DNA from: Amycolatopsis bullii
Lineage (GTDB): Bacteria > Actinomycetota > Actinomycetes > Mycobacteriales > Pseudonocardiaceae
NCBI RefSeq assembly: GCF_014654205.1
Contig: NZ_BNAW01000037.1
Coordinates: 1 to 64,000 of the forward strand
DNA: 64,000 nt
Reading direction: 5' to 3'
Positions within the stretch are counted from its first letter, which is position 1. Each line of letters starts with the position of its first letter. Made by a program: the position numbers and the translations under genes. The notes under the pieces were generated by a model, which made no database searches, was not told where the DNA came from, and saw only the letters and a program-made list of their open reading frames with translations. This document shows positions 585 through 58,474 of this stretch, in pieces.

Positions 585-2195
585 ATGACCAGCACGACCC
601 CCGCGAACGCAGTCGAAGACACCTCGTTGCCGCCGACCGTCGGCGGCGTCGCCGGGGCGCCGGGCGCGGCGCGGGCGGCCCAGCTCGTCGCCCGCGTGAC
701 CGGCGGCGCGGACTCCGCCCCGATCCGGATGACCGCGCCGTTCACCGGGCTGCCCATCGCGACCCTGCCGCAGGCCACCGACGCCGACGTCCGCGCGGTG
801 TTCGCGGACGCGCGCACCGCCCAGCGAGCCTGGGCGGACCGCTCCCCCGCCGAGCGCGCCCGCGTCCTCACCCGCCTGCACGACCTGGTGCTCGCGAAGC
901 AGGACGAGGTGCTCGACCTGGTCCAGGTCGAAGCGGGCAAGGCGCGGCTCGACGCGTTCGACGAGGTGAGCGCGACCGCGCTGGTGGCGGCCTACTACGG
1001 CAAGCACGCGGCGAAGCTCCTCGCGCCCCGCCGCGTCGCCGGCGTCATCCCGGGGCTGACCCGCGCGGGCGAGGTCCGGCACCCGAAGGGCGTCGTCGGG
1101 ATCATCTCGCCGTGGAACTACCCGCTGGCCCTGACGGCGATGGACGTCCTGCCGGCGCTGGCCGCGGGCAACGCCGTCGTGCAGAAGCCGGACAACCAGA
1201 CCGCGCTTTCCGCGCTGTGGCTGCACGAGCTCGCCGAGGAGGCCGGGCTGCCCGCGGGGACGTGGCAGATCGTGCTCGGCCGCGGCTCGAAGATCGGCAC
1301 CGCGCTGGTCGAGGAGTCGGACTACCTGTGCTTCACCGGGTCCACGCCGACCGGCAAGGAACTGGCCGGCCAGGTGGCGAAGCGGCTGACGTCGTACTCG
1401 CTGGAGCTCGGCGGCAAGAACCCGATGATCGTGCTGCCCGACGCCGACGTCGCGAAGGCCGCGACGGGCGCGGTGACCGCGTGCTTCTCCTCGGCCGGGC
1501 AGCTCTGCGTGTCGGTCGAGCGGATCTACGTCCACGAGGACATCCGCGACGAGTTCACCCGCGCGTTCGTCGCGCGCACCGCGGCGCTGCGGCTCGGCGG
1601 CGCGCTGGACTACCAGGCCCAGATGGGGTCCCTGACGTCGGAAGAGCAGCTCGCGGCGGTCTCGAAGCACGTTGAGGACGCCCGCGCGAAGGGCGCTTCG
1701 GTGCTGACCGGCGGCCGGGCGCGGCCCGACCTGGGCCCGCTGTTCTACGAGCCGACGGTGCTCTCCGGCGTCACCCCGGACATGCTGCCGTTCGCGGAGG
1801 AGACGTTCGGGCCGGTCGTGTCGATCTACGGCTACACCGACGTCACCGACGCGATCGAGCGGGCCAACGACACGCCGTTCGGGCTCAACGCCAGCGTCTG
1901 GTCGCGCAATGGCCGCGCGGGCTGGGAGGTCGCGGCGCGGCTGAAGGCCGGGACGGTCAACGTGAACGAGGGCTACGCGGCGACGTTCGGCAGCGTCGGG
2001 GTCCCGATGGGCGGGATGAAGGACTCCGGCGTCGGCCGCCGCAACGGCGCCGAAGGCCTGCTGAAGTACACGGAGTCCCAGTCGATCGCCCTCCAGCGCG
2101 GCCTCGCCCTGCGTCCCCCGCGCGCGGTCCCCGGCTCCCTGTGGTCCCGAGGCATGACCTTCGGCCTCAAAGCCCTCCGCCGCCTCCCCCGCTGA
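585..2195 (+). CDS. gabD2: Succinic semialdehyde dehydrogenase (NAD(P)-dependent aldehyde dehydrogenase)
   Basis: This 536-residue aldehyde dehydrogenase oxidises succinate semialdehyde to succinate with NAD(P) in 4-aminobutyrate or related catabolism, in the cytoplasm. The catalytic pair is visible: Glu274 in LELGGKNP and Cys308 in GQLCVSVERI. The IISPWNYPL and FTGSTPTGK cofactor motifs precede them. It has an N-terminal extension of about 40 residues, and the C-terminal part resembles the mycobacterial GabD2 group rather than classical GabD. It is a single gene, preceded by an inverted repeat at 513-540 and followed immediately by a 21-base repeat array. Substrate is inferred from the family; another medium-chain aldehyde is possible. 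Confidence 0.85.
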   Translation: MTSTTPANAVEDTSLPPTVGGVAGAPGAARAAQLVARVTGGADSAPIRMTAPFTGLPIATLPQATDADVRAVFADARTAQRAWADRSPAERARVLTRLHDLVLAKQDEVLDLVQVEAGKARLDAFDEVSATALVAAYYGKHAAKLLAPRRVAGVIPGLTRAGEVRHPKGVVGIISPWNYPLALTAMDVLPALAAGNAVVQKPDNQTALSALWLHELAEEAGLPAGTWQIVLGRGSKIGTALVEESDYLCFTGSTPTGKELAGQVAKRLTSYSLELGGKNPMIVLPDADVAKAATGAVTACFSSAGQLCVSVERIYVHEDIRDEFTRAFVARTAALRLGGALDYQAQMGSLTSEEQLAAVSKHVEDARAKGASVLTGGRARPDLGPLFYEPTVLSGVTPDMLPFAEETFGPVVSIYGYTDVTDAIERANDTPFGLNASVWSRNGRAGWEVAARLKAGTVNVNEGYAATFGSVGVPMGGMKDSGVGRRNGAEGLLKYTESQSIALQRGLALRPPRAVPGSLWSRGMTFGLKALRRLPR

Positions 2196-2196
2196 C

Positions 2197-2357
2197 GGGC
2201 ATCACGCGTGATCCAGCGGGCATCACGCGTGATTGGACGGGCATTACGCGTGATTGGCGGGGCATCAGCCCGATGCCTCCCCAATCACGCGTGATGCCCC
2301 GCTGATCACGTTTGATGCCCCTCTGATCACGTTTGATGCCCCGCTGATCACGCGGTG
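2197..2357. repeat. Array of seven 21-base repeats in two opposed blocks between convergent genes
   Basis: The 12-base palindrome ATCACGCGTGAT, or a close variant, starts at 2201, 2222 and 2243, preceded each time by GGGC. It starts again at 2284, 2305, 2326 and 2347, where the unit is reversed and followed by GCCCC. Spacing within each block is exactly 21 bases. The two blocks face each other around about 2268, so copies 3 and 4 plus the inner GGGGCATC/GATGCC segments can fold into one long hairpin. The array fills the whole gap and its last copy covers the stop codon of the downstream minus-strand gene. It could act as a bidirectional terminator or bind a protein once per two helical turns. 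Confidence 0.85.
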
Positions 2358-5300
2358 GGGGCCGTCAACAGGCCTCGGTCGTAGGCGATGGCCACTGCTT
2401 CGGCGCGGCGGCTGGCGCCCAGTTTGGCCATCACGCGGGAAAGGTGGACGCTCACCGTTTTTTCGCTGATGTAGAGCTCTTCGCCGACCTGGCGGTTCGT
2501 GCGGCCCAGGGCGACGCGCTCCAGGACGTCGCGCTCGCGGTCGGTGAGCGGGTCGGTGACCGTGCGGGCCGGGGGTGCCGGCTCGACGCCGTCCAGCTCG
2601 ACGCGGGCGCGGTGGGCCAGGTCGCGGACCGCGTCGCGCAGCGGGATCGCGCCGAGGCGGACCGCCACCTCGTGGGCCGCCTCGAGGGACGCGCCCGCGT
2701 CGGTGTCGGCCGCCAGCAGCGCTTCGGCTTCGTGCCAGCGGCAGATCGCCTGCTCGTAGACGGCGCCGTAGCCGAACGCTTCCGCCGCGGCCGCCCACAT
2801 CCGGGCGTCGCCGCGGCCGGACAGGCAGGTGGCCGCCGCCTCCAGGCGGGCCAGCCACGCGCGGCCCTCCGGTCCGAGCGTGCCCGAGCGCGGCTGGCCG
2901 ACGACCGCGCACATCCGGCCGTGCGCCAGGAGCCGCTCGCCGGCCGCCACCGCGGCTTCGGCGGCGGTCTGGTCGCCGTGGAGCCGGGCCGCCGCGGCCA
3001 GCGCGGCCGCCGCGGACACGCCGAGCGCGGCCACCCGGATGCCGGCCAGCAGGCCGGGTTCGATCCGCTCCAGCCAGCCGATCAGGTCTTCGGCCTGGCG
3101 CACGGCGTCGGCGTGGTCGCCGTGCCAGTACGCCAGCTCGATCCCGGCGCCGCCGGCCGACAGCGGGATCTGCATGTCCGCCGTCCAGTGCTGCCGCAGC
3201 CCGGACAGCAGCTTCGCGGCCTCGTCCGACCGGCCGCGGGCGACGACGAACAGCGACCAGATGGCCAGGATCCGCGCGGCGACCGCGTTGGACACCCCGC
3301 GCCCGGCGCGCCCGGCGCTCTCGTCCGGCCAGTCGCCCATCAGGTACCGCAGCATCAGCTGCCGCGCCCGCAGCTCCAGCCCGTAGACGCTCCAGCTCAG
3401 CCCGGCTTCCTCGGCGCGGGCGACGCCGTGCGTGGCGTGCTCCAGCGCTTCGGCGAACTCGCCCTGGTCGTCGTGGCTCAACGCCAGGAAGTAGGTGGCG
3501 CGGATCTCGGTGTTGTACGCGCCGACGTCCCGCGCCTTGCGCTGGGCCTGCCGCAGCCGCTCCCGGGCTTCGGCGGCGTCGCCGCGCGAGTCGGCCAGCG
3601 TGCCCAGGGTGACCAGCGCCGACGCCTCCGCCCCCGTCGCGCCCACGGCCTGGGCGTCGGCGACCGCGGTGAGCGCGCTGTCGAGCGCCGCCTCGGGCTG
3701 GTCGAGGATCCGGAGGAAGCCGGCCCGGCTGGCCAGCACCCAGGCGCGCGCGGAGCTGGGATCGGTGTCCTTGACCAGGTCCCAGGCCCGGTCGATGGCG
3801 GCGACCGCCTCGTCGAGCGTGCCTTCCAGCGCCAGCAGCGCGTCCGCCAGCCGCCGCCACACCTTGGCGGCCCGGTCGTTCGGGATGTCCGGCGTCAGCG
3901 CCTGGGTGGCGGAGCGGGCGAACGCGGCGGCCCGCTCGGGCTCGCCGGAGGTCCCCGCGAAGTACGACGCTTCGTACAGCAGCTTCAGCTCGTCGACGCC
4001 TTCGGGCCGGTCCGCCGGGGTGACGGCGTCCCAGATGGACAGCGCCTGTTCGACGTGCTGCAGCGCCGACCCGGGCGCACCGAGTTTCTCGGCTTCGTCC
4101 ATCGCGCGCAGCAACGCCGGCAGCGCGGTGGCCAGATCGCTGCTCTGCATCGAGTGGTAGGCCAGCTTCGCGTCATGACCGCGGCCCTGGGCGCGCGCCT
4201 TGATCCGCGCCGCGTACGCCGCGTGCGTGCGCGACCGCTCCCCGGGCAGCAGATCGCCGTACACGGCTTCCTGCAGCAACGCGTGCCGGAACGTGTACGA
4301 GCCGTCCGAAAGCACCACGAGCACGTGGTGCTGGACGGCTTCGCGCAGCGCGTCGTCGAGTTCGAGCTCCCCCAGCCCGGAAACCTCGGCGAGCGCGGCG
4401 TGCATGACGGGTTCGTTGGCCACCGAGATCACCCGCGCCACCCGGCGGGCGTCCGGGGAGAGCCGCTCGAGCCGGGACAGCAGCACCTCGGCCAGCCCGG
4501 CGGGCAGGTCGTTGCACTCGGTCTTGGTGGCGAGCAGCTCCTCGGCGAAGAACGGGTTGCCCTCGGAGCGGCTGACGATGTCGGCCACGACGTCCGACGG
4601 CAGCGGCTCGTCGGCCAGCGCCTCGACGAACTTGCGGGCGTCGACCGCACCGAAGGGCCGCAGGTCGACGTGCTCCACCGTGGCGAGCCGGACCAGCTCG
4701 GCCAGCACGCCGCGCAGCGGGTGACGCCGGTGGACGTCCTCCTCGCGGTAGCTGCCGACGACCAGCAGCCGCTGCGCCCGCAGCCGGGTGAGCAGGAAGG
4801 ACAGCAGGTTGCGGGTCGAGGCGTCGGCCCAGTGGAGATCCTCCAGCAGGATCACCACCGGGCGCGACTCCGCGACCTCGGTCAGCACCCCCAGTACCGC
4901 GTCGAACAACTGCAGCTGACCGAGGTCCTGCTCCGGCCGGGGACGCACCATGGTTTCCCGGTCGTTGGAGGTCATCGGCGGGTGTTCGGCCGCCCGGGGC
5001 TCCTCGAAGCCCGGGCCCTGCGGCAGCAGCCGCCCGAGCGCGGGCCGGGCCCGCACCGCGGCGGCGACCGCCGGGTCCGTCGCGCTGCCCAGCGGGGCGA
5101 GCGCCTCGGCGAACGGAAGATAAGGAAGACCGCCCTCGCGGACGTCGATGCAGCGGCCGGTGAGCACCAGCCCACCGCACGCCGCGACGTGCTCGCCGAG
5201 CGCGGTCAGCAGCCGGGTCTTGCCGACCCCGGCGTCCCCCGAGAGCAGCACCGCGCCGGCCTCGCCACGTTCGGCACGGGCGAAGGCGGCGCGGAGCCGC

Positions 5301-5362
5301 CGCATCTCGTGGGTACGGGCGACGAGCGGGATTCCGGAGCCGAGTCGGGGCACGAGGAGCAT
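2348..5362 (-). CDS. Large ATP-binding LuxR-family transcriptional regulator (LAL type)
   Basis: This 1,004-residue protein has the classic LAL plan. An N-terminal AAA/STAND ATPase carries Walker A GDAGVGKT (residues 42-49) and Walker B VVILLEDLHWAD (about 169-180). A long helical TPR-like middle (about 300-900) is probably the ligand or protein sensor. A C-terminal LuxR helix-turn-helix (about 940-1000) contains TNRQVGEELYISEKTV. Such proteins activate catabolic or antibiotic clusters. The target is not evident here; the neighbours are the small gene at 5422 and the convergent gabD2. The start at 5362 was chosen because the family-typical VARTHEMRRL stretch follows within 15 residues. Confidence 0.9.
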   Translation of the reverse strand: MLLVPRLGSGIPLVARTHEMRRLRAAFARAERGEAGAVLLSGDAGVGKTRLLTALGEHVAACGGLVLTGRCIDVREGGLPYLPFAEALAPLGSATDPAVAAAVRARPALGRLLPQGPGFEEPRAAEHPPMTSNDRETMVRPRPEQDLGQLQLFDAVLGVLTEVAESRPVVILLEDLHWADASTRNLLSFLLTRLRAQRLLVVGSYREEDVHRRHPLRGVLAELVRLATVEHVDLRPFGAVDARKFVEALADEPLPSDVVADIVSRSEGNPFFAEELLATKTECNDLPAGLAEVLLSRLERLSPDARRVARVISVANEPVMHAALAEVSGLGELELDDALREAVQHHVLVVLSDGSYTFRHALLQEAVYGDLLPGERSRTHAAYAARIKARAQGRGHDAKLAYHSMQSSDLATALPALLRAMDEAEKLGAPGSALQHVEQALSIWDAVTPADRPEGVDELKLLYEASYFAGTSGEPERAAAFARSATQALTPDIPNDRAAKVWRRLADALLALEGTLDEAVAAIDRAWDLVKDTDPSSARAWVLASRAGFLRILDQPEAALDSALTAVADAQAVGATGAEASALVTLGTLADSRGDAAEARERLRQAQRKARDVGAYNTEIRATYFLALSHDDQGEFAEALEHATHGVARAEEAGLSWSVYGLELRARQLMLRYLMGDWPDESAGRAGRGVSNAVAARILAIWSLFVVARGRSDEAAKLLSGLRQHWTADMQIPLSAGGAGIELAYWHGDHADAVRQAEDLIGWLERIEPGLLAGIRVAALGVSAAAALAAAARLHGDQTAAEAAVAAGERLLAHGRMCAVVGQPRSGTLGPEGRAWLARLEAAATCLSGRGDARMWAAAAEAFGYGAVYEQAICRWHEAEALLAADTDAGASLEAAHEVAVRLGAIPLRDAVRDLAHRARVELDGVEPAPPARTVTDPLTDRERDVLERVALGRTNRQVGEELYISEKTVSVHLSRVMAKLGASRRAEAVAIAYDRGLLTAPTA

Positions 5363-56215: not shown

Positions 56216-57241
56216 ATGGACTTCACCCCTTCCGAGGCGTCGGCCGACCTCGCCGCGCTGACTCGGCGGCTGCTCGCGGACAAGGCCACCCACGACCCGC
56301 ACGGCACCGGCGGCTTCGACACGGTTTCGTGGACGGCGCTCGGCCAGGCCGGCGTGCTGGACGCGGCGCTGCCGTCGTCGCTGGGCGGCGGCGGGTTCGG
56401 GCTGCTGGAGCAGTGCGCGGTGCTGACCGAGATCGGCCGCGCGGTGGCGGCGGTCCCGTACTTGCCGTCGATCACGATGGCGGCGTCGGCGCTGGCCGAG
56501 TTCGGCACACCGGAGCTGGTGGACCGCTGGGTGCTGCCGGTGCTGCGGGGCGAGCGGGTCCTCGCGGTGGCGCTGTCCGGTTTCACGGCTTCGGGCGGCC
56601 GGGTGTCCGGCACGCAGACGGCCGTGCCGTTCGGGGCCTTCGCGCACGGGTTCCTGGTCGCCGCTGCGGACGAGGTCTTCCTGGTCGACGCCGCGGCTGC
56701 GGGCGTCTCGGTGCGGCCGCAGCAGACGGTCGACCACGCGGACGCCTGCCTTCTGGAACTGTCCGAGGTGCCCGGGGTGTCGCTGGGCGACATCGGGGAC
56801 TGGCTGCGTCTGCGCGGGACGGTCGGGGTGTGCGCCCAGCAGCTCGGCGTGGTCGAGCGGGCGCTGGAGCTGACGGCGGCGTACGCGGCCGAGCGGAAGC
56901 AGTTCGACCACGTGATCGGCGGGTTCCAGGCGGTCCGCCAGCGGCTCGCGGACGCGTACCTGGACGTGGAGGCGGTCCGCCTGACGACGCTGCAGGCGGC
57001 GTGGCAGCTTTCGTCGGACGCCCCGGCCGCCTCGGAAGCGGTGGCGACGGCGAAGTTCTGGGCCGCGGAGGCGGGCCACCGCGTGGCCCACACGGCGGTC
57101 CACGTCCACGGCGGCGTGGGCATCGACGTCGACCACGTGGTGCACCGCTACTTCGCGGCGGCGAAACGCCTGGAGTTCCAGCTGGGCGCGGCCACCCACC
57201 AGCTCCTCACCCTCGGCGACCTCCTCGCCCGCAAACCCTGA
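56216..57241 (+). CDS. fadE27: Acyl-CoA dehydrogenase FadE27 (ChsE5-type)
   Basis: This is a 341-residue partner of FadE26, shorter and lacking the usual catalytic Glu segment, as expected for the heteromeric FadE group. ERKQFDHVIGGFQAVRQRLADAYLDVEAVR and HVHGGVGIDVDHVVHRYFAAAKRLEFQLG are the recognisable parts. AGGAG precedes its ATG, 8 bases after the fadE26 stop. It is required with FadE26 for a complete FAD site. The 21-base repeat array starts at its stop codon. Confidence 0.9.
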   Translation: MDFTPSEASADLAALTRRLLADKATHDPHGTGGFDTVSWTALGQAGVLDAALPSSLGGGGFGLLEQCAVLTEIGRAVAAVPYLPSITMAASALAEFGTPELVDRWVLPVLRGERVLAVALSGFTASGGRVSGTQTAVPFGAFAHGFLVAAADEVFLVDAAAAGVSVRPQQTVDHADACLLELSEVPGVSLGDIGDWLRLRGTVGVCAQQLGVVERALELTAAYAAERKQFDHVIGGFQAVRQRLADAYLDVEAVRLTTLQAAWQLSSDAPAASEAVATAKFWAAEAGHRVAHTAVHVHGGVGIDVDHVVHRYFAAAKRLEFQLGAATHQLLTLGDLLARKP

Positions 57242-57325
57242 CGGTCGGCTCGCGTACCCGGACAGTCGGCCTGCGTACCCCCACAGTCGGCTTGCGTGCC
57301 TGGGCGGTCGGCTCACCGGCCGACC
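57241..57325. repeat. 21-base tandem repeats and small hairpin between convergent genes
   Basis: Three full units start at 57241, 57262 and 57283, and a partial fourth at 57304. Each carries RCRGTCGGCYYGCGT-like wording (ACGGTCGGCTCGCGT, ACAGTCGGCCTGCGT, ACAGTCGGCTTGCGT), with an exact 21-base step. A hairpin follows: GGTCGGC (57306-57312) with GCCGACC (57319-57325). The array begins on the last base of the fadE27 stop and fills most of the gap to the convergent serine hydrolase. Confidence 0.85.
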
Positions 57326-57340
57326 CTCCCGGTACGGGCG

Positions 57341-58474
57341 CTAGCTGGCCGCGTAGGTCCAGAATTCCTTCATGAGCGGGGTGGGCTCGGGGCTGGTCAG
57401 CTCGACCTGGGTCAGCAGCACCGAGACCGTGCCCGTCGCCGGGACCAGGTGCAGCGCCGTGCCCGCGCCACCGACCCAGCCATAGCGGCCGGGGATCTCC
57501 CACGGCTCCTTCGCGTCGACGTCCACCGAGCCGCCGTAGCCCCAGCCCTGGCCGTGCAGGAACGGCCGGGCCGCCGTCCGCTGGGCGGGGGTCAGGTGGT
57601 CGGTCGTCATGCGGTGGACCGACTCCGGCGTCAGCAGGCGGTGGCCGCCCGCCGTGCCCTCGTCGCGCAGGAACCTCGCGAACGCCAGCAGGTCGTCGGC
57701 CGTCGAGACGAGCCCGCCGGCTCCGGACGGGAACGGCGGCGGGGCGCTCCAGCGGCCCTCCGGCGAGTCGATCAGCCGCAGCCCCTCCTCGCCGCGGCGG
57801 TAGGCGCTGGTGAACCGGCCGAGCGCCGCCGTCGGCACGGCGAACCCGGTGTCGGCCATGCCGAGCGGCTCGAACAGCCGCTCCGCCAGGAACTCCGGCA
57901 GCGGGCGGCCGGCCACCCGCGCCATCAGCACGCCCTGGAGGTCCGAGCCCGTGTCGTAGAGCCACGCCTCCCCCGGCTGGGACAGCATCGGGACCTGCGC
58001 CAGCGCCGCCAGCCACTCGTCCGGCGACAGCGCCCGCGGGGACGCCGCCGGGCGGCCCAGCACCTGCAGCAGCAGGTCGACCGCGGGCAGCGTCATGTCC
58101 CCGGTGAGGCCGTACCCGCACCGGAAGGTGAGCAGGTCGGCCACCGTGATCGGGCGGGCGGCCGGCACGACGTCGTCGACCGGGCCGTCCGGCGTGCGGA
58201 CGACCACGGGAGACGCCAGCTCCGGGAGCCACCGCACGATCGGGTCGTCCAGGGCCAGCTCGCCGTCGTCGACGAGCAGGAGCACGGCCGCGGCGGTGAT
58301 CGGCTTGGTCAGGGACGCGACGCGGAACAGCGAGTCCCGCGCCATCGGCACGGTGCCCTCGGCGTCGGCCGAGCCGGCGGCCGCGGCTTCGACCTGCTCG
58401 CCGCGGGCCACGAGGGCCACCGCGCCCGGCAGATCGCCGAGGTGCCGGGACAGGAGCTCGGACAGCGCAGCCAT
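57341..58474 (-). CDS. Beta-lactamase-fold serine hydrolase (class C type)
   Basis: This is a 377-residue protein of the beta-lactamase/esterase/DD-peptidase class. The SxxK motif is Ser54-Leu-Thr-Lys57, the Tyr is in LYDTGSDLQG, and the WVGGAGT segment corresponds to the third (KTG-like) element. It has no signal peptide, so it is more likely a cytoplasmic esterase of the EstB group than a secreted lactamase. Its start is 2 bases after the end of the acetyltransferase gene on the same strand, so it is probably in that operon. Substrate unknown. Confidence 0.85.
   Translation of the reverse strand: MAALSELLSRHLGDLPGAVALVARGEQVEAAAAGSADAEGTVPMARDSLFRVASLTKPITAAAVLLLVDDGELALDDPIVRWLPELASPVVVRTPDGPVDDVVPAARPITVADLLTFRCGYGLTGDMTLPAVDLLLQVLGRPAASPRALSPDEWLAALAQVPMLSQPGEAWLYDTGSDLQGVLMARVAGRPLPEFLAERLFEPLGMADTGFAVPTAALGRFTSAYRRGEEGLRLIDSPEGRWSAPPPFPSGAGGLVSTADDLLAFARFLRDEGTAGGHRLLTPESVHRMTTDHLTPAQRTAARPFLHGQGWGYGGSVDVDAKEPWEIPGRYGWVGGAGTALHLVPATGTVSVLLTQVELTSPEPTPLMKEFWTYAAS

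What the first reader, a model, noticed from the sequence alone, without database searches (positions are those of the whole stretch)
2197..2357. Opposed 21-base-period array of ATCACGCGTGAT palindromes filling a convergent gene gap
Seven copies of a 12-base palindrome sit at exactly 21-base steps (2201, 2222, 2243 and then 2284, 2305, 2326, 2347). The unit flips orientation at about 2268. The array extends from 2 bases after one stop codon to the stop codon of the opposite gene. Two helical turns per unit would put every palindrome on the same DNA face. The two middle copies with the inner GGGGCATC/GATGCC form a hairpin of about 32 bases per arm. This could be a two-way terminator, a protein array site or an intergenic repeat family. 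I know of no described element of this form.
Basis: partly seen in the sequence, partly recalled or inferred. Interest (0 to 1): 0.72.

Follow-up and report, generated by a model that had tools for sequence, protein, structure and literature searches.

The report
Rewritten 21-base arrays at gene ends
In some Amycolatopsis bacteria the gaps where two genes end head-on are often filled by short DNA units repeated every 21 bases; at the sites compared, the spacing is kept while the unit sequence differs between species, which suggests a role as DNA in separating neighbouring genes.

Summary
Window 2197-2354 is an inverted pair of 21-bp tandem arrays between convergent ALDH and LuxR-family genes. 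The own genome has 132 matches to the unit GGCATCANNNGTGAT (reversed control 0). A broader core (CGCGTGAT at 21 bp) is in 38 of 80 Amycolatopsis genomes, up to 185 hits; the triple core is in 36 of 386 family genomes, all Amycolatopsis. Arrays lie at 3' ends: 49 of 83 convergent, 0 divergent, against 53 and 96 of 522 pairs without arrays. At two orthologous sites a 21-bp array is present in 18 and 19 of 19 array-bearing clade genomes and in 0 of 7 array-free relatives, while the unit type changes at least 8 and 9 times. One-armed arrays mostly do not fold as RNA; arm covariation is weak or absent; A/T content is phased near 10.5 bp; opposed arms join in about 10-bp steps. I favour a helically phased, protein-bound or wrapped DNA element between converging transcripts. 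Hairpin terminator and drifting or selfish repeat stay open. The 12-bp palindrome belongs to one sub-type only. No Y1/RAYT transposase was found (0 of 80).

The parts
2197..2354 (.). whole inverted array (type A, GGCATCA sub-type) filling the convergent gap and overlapping the LuxR stop codon
2198..2254 (+). left arm: three units at 2198, 2219 and 2240, step 21
   Evidence: 2198 and 2219 also
2261..2277 (.). centre GGCATC-5 nt-GATGCC where the orientation flips (palindrome centre to palindrome centre across it 41 bp)
2284..2354 (-). right arm: units at 2284, 2305 and 2326 plus a half unit at 2347, step 21
585..2195 (+). left convergent gene, aldehyde dehydrogenase (PF00171)
2348..5362 (-). right convergent gene, LuxR-family regulator with AAA_16 domain
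57235..57330 (.). second array of the window, sub-type P (about GCGTACCCGGACAGTCGGCTC; TRF: 57235-57314, period 21, 3.8 copies, with an apparent short opposed arm behind it), between a + ORF ending at 57241 and a - ORF ending at 57341
   Evidence: TRF; sequence; ORFs (ORFs listed, not verified as genes); same sub-type at orthologous sites in G054 and G066

Best explanation
A genus-specific family of modular arrays placed at the 3' ends of genes, mostly between convergent genes. SHOWN: a rigid 21-bp lattice, interchangeable unit types that can be mixed in one register, inverted, outward and one-armed layouts, 3'-end placement, all-or-none presence per genome, and, at the two sites compared, site fidelity with unit-type switching. 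INFERRED: what is maintained is the rotational setting of the DNA (two helical turns per unit, junctions in about 10-bp steps, A/T phased near 10.5 bp). The array would therefore act as double-stranded DNA bound or wrapped by a protein that reads phased sites or phased bendability. DNA gyrase is one candidate and an unidentified nucleoid or sequence-specific protein the other. It would act as an insulator or supercoil-handling site where two transcription units meet. In inverted arrays the RNA hairpin may add termination or 3'-end protection in both directions.
For: Spacing: among the 100 listed matches of a pattern that asks for no spacing, 31 of 31 successive same-strand units within 150 bp are 21 (25) or 42 (6) apart. 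In the wider set of loci the next core is at 21 in 391 of 396 cases, but most of those loci were fetched with 21-bp patterns and pairs can count twice. Period outlives sequence: at two orthologous sites, found through flanking genes and not through the repeat, 18 and 19 of 19 array-bearing clade genomes have 21 as best self-match lag among 14-30 (identity 0.6 or more) across sub-types A, B, C and P. Phasing: A/T power strongest at 10.5 bp among six harmonics in 75 of 102 arrays, 203 flank controls flat. Junctions: outward junctions give a best period of 10.5 bp, R 0.76 over 72 loci, R 0.556 over 23 distinct distances, 1 of 5000 random draws as high; inward junctions in the listed part are at 31, 41, 42 and 52-54 bp. 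Place: 49 of 83 convergent, 0 of 83 divergent, against 53 and 96 of 522 (convergent p = 5.8e-22); edges a median 20 bp from stops (n = 132) and 126 bp from starts (n = 34). One-armed arrays mostly do not fold (z < -3 in 8 of 38). Analogy: the E. coli gyrase motif has phased 10-bp G/C variation, and gyrase cleavage sites are enriched downstream of highly transcribed operons and in BIME-2 (PMC6379681, passages).
Against: No binding protein was identified or tested. Junction distances are not independent: loci share ancestry, 55 of 72 lie at 6-10 and 14 at 17-20 modulo 21 (3 elsewhere), so two ancestral junctions plus unit gain or loss could give much of the signal, and the p-values are optimistic. 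The type C and P consensus units do not have 10.5 bp as strongest A/T harmonic, a random 21-mer reaches type A's share in 6.9% of trials, and the types with the strong harmonic share the core. Inverted symmetry is frequent, which a pure binding array would not need. Inward arms pair slightly better level by level (0.049, p = 0.024, n = 23 arrays), as a hairpin under selection would. In E. coli the gyrase signal at BIME-2 sites rose, not fell, under rifampicin, which does not fit a simple transcription-supercoil sink. Array-free relatives have only a short gap at the ALDH site in 6 of 7 cases, so the element is not needed there in every species.
Confidence: 0.42

Rival explanations
1. Bidirectional intrinsic terminator / 3'-end protecting hairpin. 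Inverted arms are transcribed from either side into a long GC-rich stem without a U-tract (I-shaped type) that stops or protects both transcripts. The tandem units merely lengthen the stem.
For: Fold of the window array z = -11.1. 46 of 49 inward arrays and 11 of 15 outward arrays folded have z < -3 (25 shuffles each). Placement close behind stop codons. Inward arms pair better at the same level than at other levels (p = 0.024, n = 23). U-lacking structured 3' ends likened to I-shaped terminators are reported in Streptomyces clavuligerus (PMC8269248, passages).
Against: 38 of 113 arrays are one-armed and mostly unstructured (8 of 38 z < -3), though some may have an undetected degraded arm. No consistent covariation beyond what arrays of the same centre length share, and none in outward arrays (p = 0.95, n = 13). 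A hairpin does not require 21-bp units or quantised loop lengths.
Confidence: 0.3
2. Selfish or neutral dispersed repeat (REP/MITE-like) that spreads and turns over by copying or recombination. It survives only where insertion does no harm, i.e. behind stop codons; the 21-bp step is a relic of unit duplication.
For: From about ten to nearly two hundred core pairs per array-bearing genome, found in one genus only among those searched, all-or-none between sister genomes. Unit types switch at fixed sites. Several array-free relatives carry short gaps at the same places.
Against: No Y1/RAYT transposase (0 of 80 genomes); other movers were not searched, and CGTC-type REPs are reported to lack a dedicated transposase (PMC3733652, passages), so this excludes only the RAYT route. 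No 20- or 22-bp step among 31 unselected unit pairs. The same two sites are occupied in 18 and 19 of 19 array-bearing clade genomes, which random insertion would not give. Absent from divergent gaps and rare near 5' ends.
Confidence: 0.25

Closest known systems
REP / BIME elements (PMC3733652, passages)
   Same: small extragenic units, many copies, several co-existing classes, dimers in opposed orientation, patchy distribution
   Different: no Y1/RAYT gene in the genus (this separates it from GTAG REPs, not from CGTC REPs, which the paper says lack a dedicated transposase); unit not always palindromic; 21-bp lattice with mixed unit types
BIME-2 arrays cleaved by DNA gyrase in E. coli (PMC6379681, passages)
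   Same: extragenic arrays of short repeats; candidate gyrase role; helical phasing of G/C in the gyrase motif
   Different: gyrase binding untested here; different sequence, unit length and layout; in E. coli the BIME-2 signal did not depend on transcription
U-lacking I-shaped / bidirectional 3' ends of actinomycetes (PMC8269248, passages)
   Same: GC-rich stem-loops at 3' ends, some bidirectional
   Different: here built from a dispersed, type-switching 21-bp repeat; one-armed forms exist; no 3'-end data
Prokaryotic satellites (PMC6749651, passages: table lists 23 satellites for A. mediterranei)
   Same: tandem repeats in an Amycolatopsis genome
   Different: the passages seen describe no 21-bp 3'-end family, inversion or type switching
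Inverted DNA uptake sequences used as terminators in Neisseria (recalled, no call)
   Same: dispersed repeat used as inverted pairs at gene ends
   Different: no uptake link known; multi-unit lattice

Membership tests
REP/BIME (GTAG, RAYT-associated) | RAYT / Y1 transposase present in the genome | tested here: not met
   PF01797: 0 of 80 genus genomes, while it rings in 5 of 14 control genomes
REP/BIME (GTAG or CGTC) | each unit is a palindrome with a GTAG or CGTC tag at one end | tested here: inconclusive
   unit profile shows an asymmetric core and no GTAG; a palindrome is present in type A only; GACG/CGTC occurs inside type D spacers, and no formal test for a terminal tag was made
REP/BIME | dispersed extragenic repeats, many copies | tested here: met
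   (1 of 84 arrays appeared to lie inside an open frame)
Intrinsic terminator | stable hairpin | tested here: inconclusive
   46 of 49 inward arrays have z < -3 but only 8 of 38 one-armed arrays
Intrinsic terminator | U-tract after the stem | tested here: not met
   window array only: no T run beside it on either strand; I-shaped terminators do not need one
Intrinsic terminator | transcripts end at the element | not testable with these tools
   no RNA data
Gyrase-binding array (BIME-2-like) | helically phased G/C content | tested here: inconclusive
   10.5-bp A/T power strongest in 75 of 102 arrays, median length 112 bp; type C and P consensus units do not show it as strongest harmonic
Gyrase-binding array (BIME-2-like) | gyrase binds or cleaves there | not testable with these tools
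   needs Topo-seq or ChIP
MITE / insertion element | target-site duplication at occupied versus empty sites | tested here: inconclusive
   occupied and array-free ALDH and AdnA-like sites looked at by eye only; no duplication noticed, flanks too changed for a firm call
Rfam families | match above gathering score | tested here: not met
   (window 2000-2600): 8 matches with E up to 1, all far below gathering (best 39.5 against 197 bits), miRNA and snoRNA models, as generic long hairpins would give

The most novel reading that the evidence does not exclude
Amycolatopsis carries a genome-wide system, with at least one trans-acting component lost in array-free sister lineages, that installs and keeps rewriting arrays at chosen gene ends. 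What is inherited is the site and the 21-bp helical register, not the sequence. Whole arrays switch between unit types A, B, C and P at the same site while the lattice stays, so selection acts on a rotational DNA scaffold between converging genes rather than on a motif or a hairpin.
Probability: 0.3. Interest if true: 0.87.

Novelty: new variant of a known kind. Interest (0 to 1): 0.74.

Why it matters
Dispersed bacterial repeats are usually recognised by conserved sequence. Here, at the two sites compared, a spacing is conserved while the sequence turns over, in a phylogenetically patchy way. That makes a direct test of DNA-scaffold or supercoiling functions at convergent gene ends possible. 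Array-free sister species serve as natural knockouts, for example G040 (0 hits) beside G067 (105). If only a repeat, it still explains a share of the 3' intergenic DNA in an antibiotic-producing genus and warns against reading such hairpins as strain-specific regulators.

Tried and rejected
Palindrome as the conserved unit: rejected. Other sub-types lack it.

RAYT-driven REP: not supported, PF01797 absent. Viral or plasmid origin: triple core in 0 viral contigs; the window array has no plasmid match at E 0.01 (BLAST's low-complexity filter was on).

Rfam hits: far below gathering, set aside as generic hairpin matches.

Hairpin covariation: inward same-level pairing 0.768 (n = 45) against 0.717 (n = 55), per-array p = 0.024 (n = 23 arrays); outward p = 0.95 (n = 13). 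Centre complementarity shows no consistent excess over partners from other arrays of the same centre length. An earlier, smaller run gave a similar picture.

Spacing figures that were circular were dropped or marked: the 321 of 323 figure came from units chosen for a neighbour at 21 and is not used; rests mostly on loci fetched with 21-bp patterns. The unselected recount is. In 'occupied' was defined by the 21-bp lag, so the fair statement is the count of genomes that meet it; 6 array-free genomes at the ALDH site and 3 at the AdnA-like site had gaps too short for the lag test.

A first junction analysis was contaminated by palindrome echoes in type A (distances 17, 25, 38, 46). It was replaced by oriented patterns. 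For one search, 27 of 99 loci on multiples of 21 were dropped before the statistic. The place listings are truncated, so one search covers the listed loci only; the inward distances were read by eye from the listed part (search range 26-56 bp), some 42s are lattice positions, and no statistic was made on them. Only exact cores enter.

One search dropped 6 arrays at locus edges and 1 that seemed to lie inside an ORF (L130). Apart from the window, its 91 loci were all picked because they hold GGCATCA-type units, so the context figures describe that sub-type best; genes came from a home-made codon-usage caller. 'One-armed' depends on a score threshold. One search's automatic typing calls G008 at the AdnA-like site B, though by eye it is mostly C-like (my note lists it as C); G050 at the ALDH site stayed untyped and counted as its own state. 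G017's single hit (L188) looks like coding sequence, i.e. chance. In one search two sites of the 100 listed count on both strands.

A description in print was not found in searches; these cover open-licence PMC papers only.

Full report
WHAT IS THERE. The window array (2197-2354) lies between a stop codon at 2193-2195 (aldehyde dehydrogenase, +) and the stop codon at 2348-2350 (LuxR-family regulator, -). It has three + units, a centre GGCATC-AGCCC-GATGCC, then three and a half - units, at 21-bp steps.

A GENOME-WIDE FAMILY. GGCATCANNNGTGAT has 66 matches on each strand of the own genome, reversed control 0. Of the 100 places listed, which form 50 clusters (19 with both strands), successive same-strand units within 150 bp are 21 (25) or 42 (6) bp apart in 31 of 31 cases; the pattern asked for no spacing. 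The tandem form occurs in 19 of 80 Amycolatopsis genomes, reversed control 0, and in no other genus among 390 family genomes. Named carriers, all 34 stretches titled Amycolatopsis, include A. rifamycinica, A. vancoresmycina, A. vastitatis and A. iheyensis.

A BROADER SUPERFAMILY. The orthologous ALDH-LuxR gap in related genomes holds other unit types in the same place and period: GGAACTCGCGTGAT (B) and GGTCGACACGCGTGAT (C) beside GGCATCACGCGTGAT (A). The shared part is CGCGTGAT every 21 bp. As a pair it is in 38 of 80 genus genomes with up to 185 hits, reversed control 0 (one of the 38, G017, has a single hit that looks like chance). As a triple it is in 36 of 386 family genomes: 36 of the 76 Amycolatopsis examined and 0 of 310 others, reversed control 0. 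Different unit types often stand side by side in one array in register. A fourth type, P, with CGCGTACC in place of the core, was seen at orthologous sites, and a P array lies in this window at 57235-57330, between ORFs that converge.

PLACEMENT. In 91 loci of mostly 8 kb, picked for GGCATCA-type units, and the window, 83 arrays had both neighbours called: 49 convergent, 34 co-directional, 0 divergent. Gene pairs without arrays in the same DNA gave 53 convergent and 96 divergent of 522 (Fisher p = 5.8e-22 for convergent; 6 arrays at edges and 1 inside an open frame left out). Array edges lie a median 20 bp from flanking stop codons (n = 132) and 126 bp from starts (n = 34); 29 of 34 co-directional arrays are nearer the 3' end.

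PHYLOGENY. On an ALDH tree of 76 genomes, arrays occur in two clades (19 of 26 and 17 of 19 genomes), with array-free genomes nested inside both. The label needs 6 changes, at least 5 forced by well-supported branches. G040 has no core pair while its sister G067 has 105.

SITE FIDELITY, TYPE SWITCHING. At the ALDH site 18 of 19 array-bearing genomes of the first clade have a 21-bp array (G066 has not); at a second site (AdnA-like UvrD/PD-DEXK helicase-nuclease gene end; domains) 19 of 19. None of the 7 array-free relatives meets the criterion at either site, several because the gap is too short to hold one. Unit types need at least 8 and 9 changes on the tree. So at these sites the period outlives the sequence. 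In two of the array-free genomes (G025, G041) the neighbour behind the AdnA-like gene differs, so that gap is not strictly comparable; at the second site four genomes of the other clade had no array either, among them array-bearing G044, G024 and G013.

SPACING AND PHASE. Besides, the next core is at 21 in 391 of 396 cases in the fetched loci (mostly spacing-selected). For outward-facing arms, 72 non-lattice loci give a best period of 10.5 bp (R 0.76); using each distance once, R 0.556, 1 of 5000 random draws as high. The inward distances listed are 31, 41, 42 and 52-54 bp. The outward loci fall mainly into two classes 10 bp apart modulo 21 (55 and 14 of 72), so shared ancestry weakens the statistic. 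A/T power is strongest at 10.5 bp among six harmonics in 75 of 102 arrays; flanking DNA is flat. The type C and P consensus units do not share that strongest harmonic.

RNA STRUCTURE. Inward arrays fold well (46 of 49 with z < -3), outward ones often (11 of 15), one-armed ones mostly not (8 of 38). Arm-by-arm pairing is only slightly better at matched levels in inward arrays (p = 0.024) and not in outward ones (p = 0.95); centres show no consistent covariation beyond the shared consensus.

INTERPRETATION. Shown: a dispersed 3'-end repeat family with a conserved 21-bp lattice and exchangeable sequence. Inferred: the lattice matters as DNA. Best guess, 0.42: a phased array bound or wrapped by a protein (gyrase or an unknown factor) between converging transcription units, with hairpin termination as a possible second role. 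E. coli BIME-2 and the phased gyrase motif (PMC6379681, passages) are the closest functional analogy, although there the BIME-2 signal did not depend on transcription. It is not a RAYT-driven REP system. Pure terminator 0.3; drifting or selfish repeat 0.25. All-or-none presence suggests a trans-acting component, which I could not identify.

Noticed in passing
window 57235-57330: Second 21-bp array, sub-type P (CGTACC in place of the core), between converging ORFs ending at 57241 and 57341; not in the finding.
   Followed up: partly
L130:4009-4080: An array that appears to lie inside a 1497-codon open frame; gene call not verified, could be a mis-call or a real intragenic array.
   Followed up: no
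L171 (G041) and L201 (G044): Another hairpin, CTCGTGAGTG...CACTCACGAG, sits at the ALDH site of array-free G041 and beside an array in G044; array-free G040 and G069 carry other hairpins at the AdnA-like site. Whether these are repeat families was not searched.
   Followed up: no
array outer edges, e.g. L099, L100, L116, L124: The outermost, degenerate unit often reads like CGTGCGCAAA; a flanking stop codon often falls within this edge unit (gap of 7 bp recurs), so arrays may supply stop codons.
   Followed up: partly
ALDH site in G047, G025, G069, G017, G040: The LuxR gene of these array-free clade members still ends in CACGCGTGA, like one leftover core at the stop codon; could be a footprint of a lost array or just coding sequence.
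   Followed up: no
L338-L341 (G035, G013, G044, G024), AdnA-like gene end: In the second clade this site has no array even in array-bearing genomes; G035 and G013 carry an unrelated hairpin there, so occupied sites differ between the two clades.
   Followed up: no
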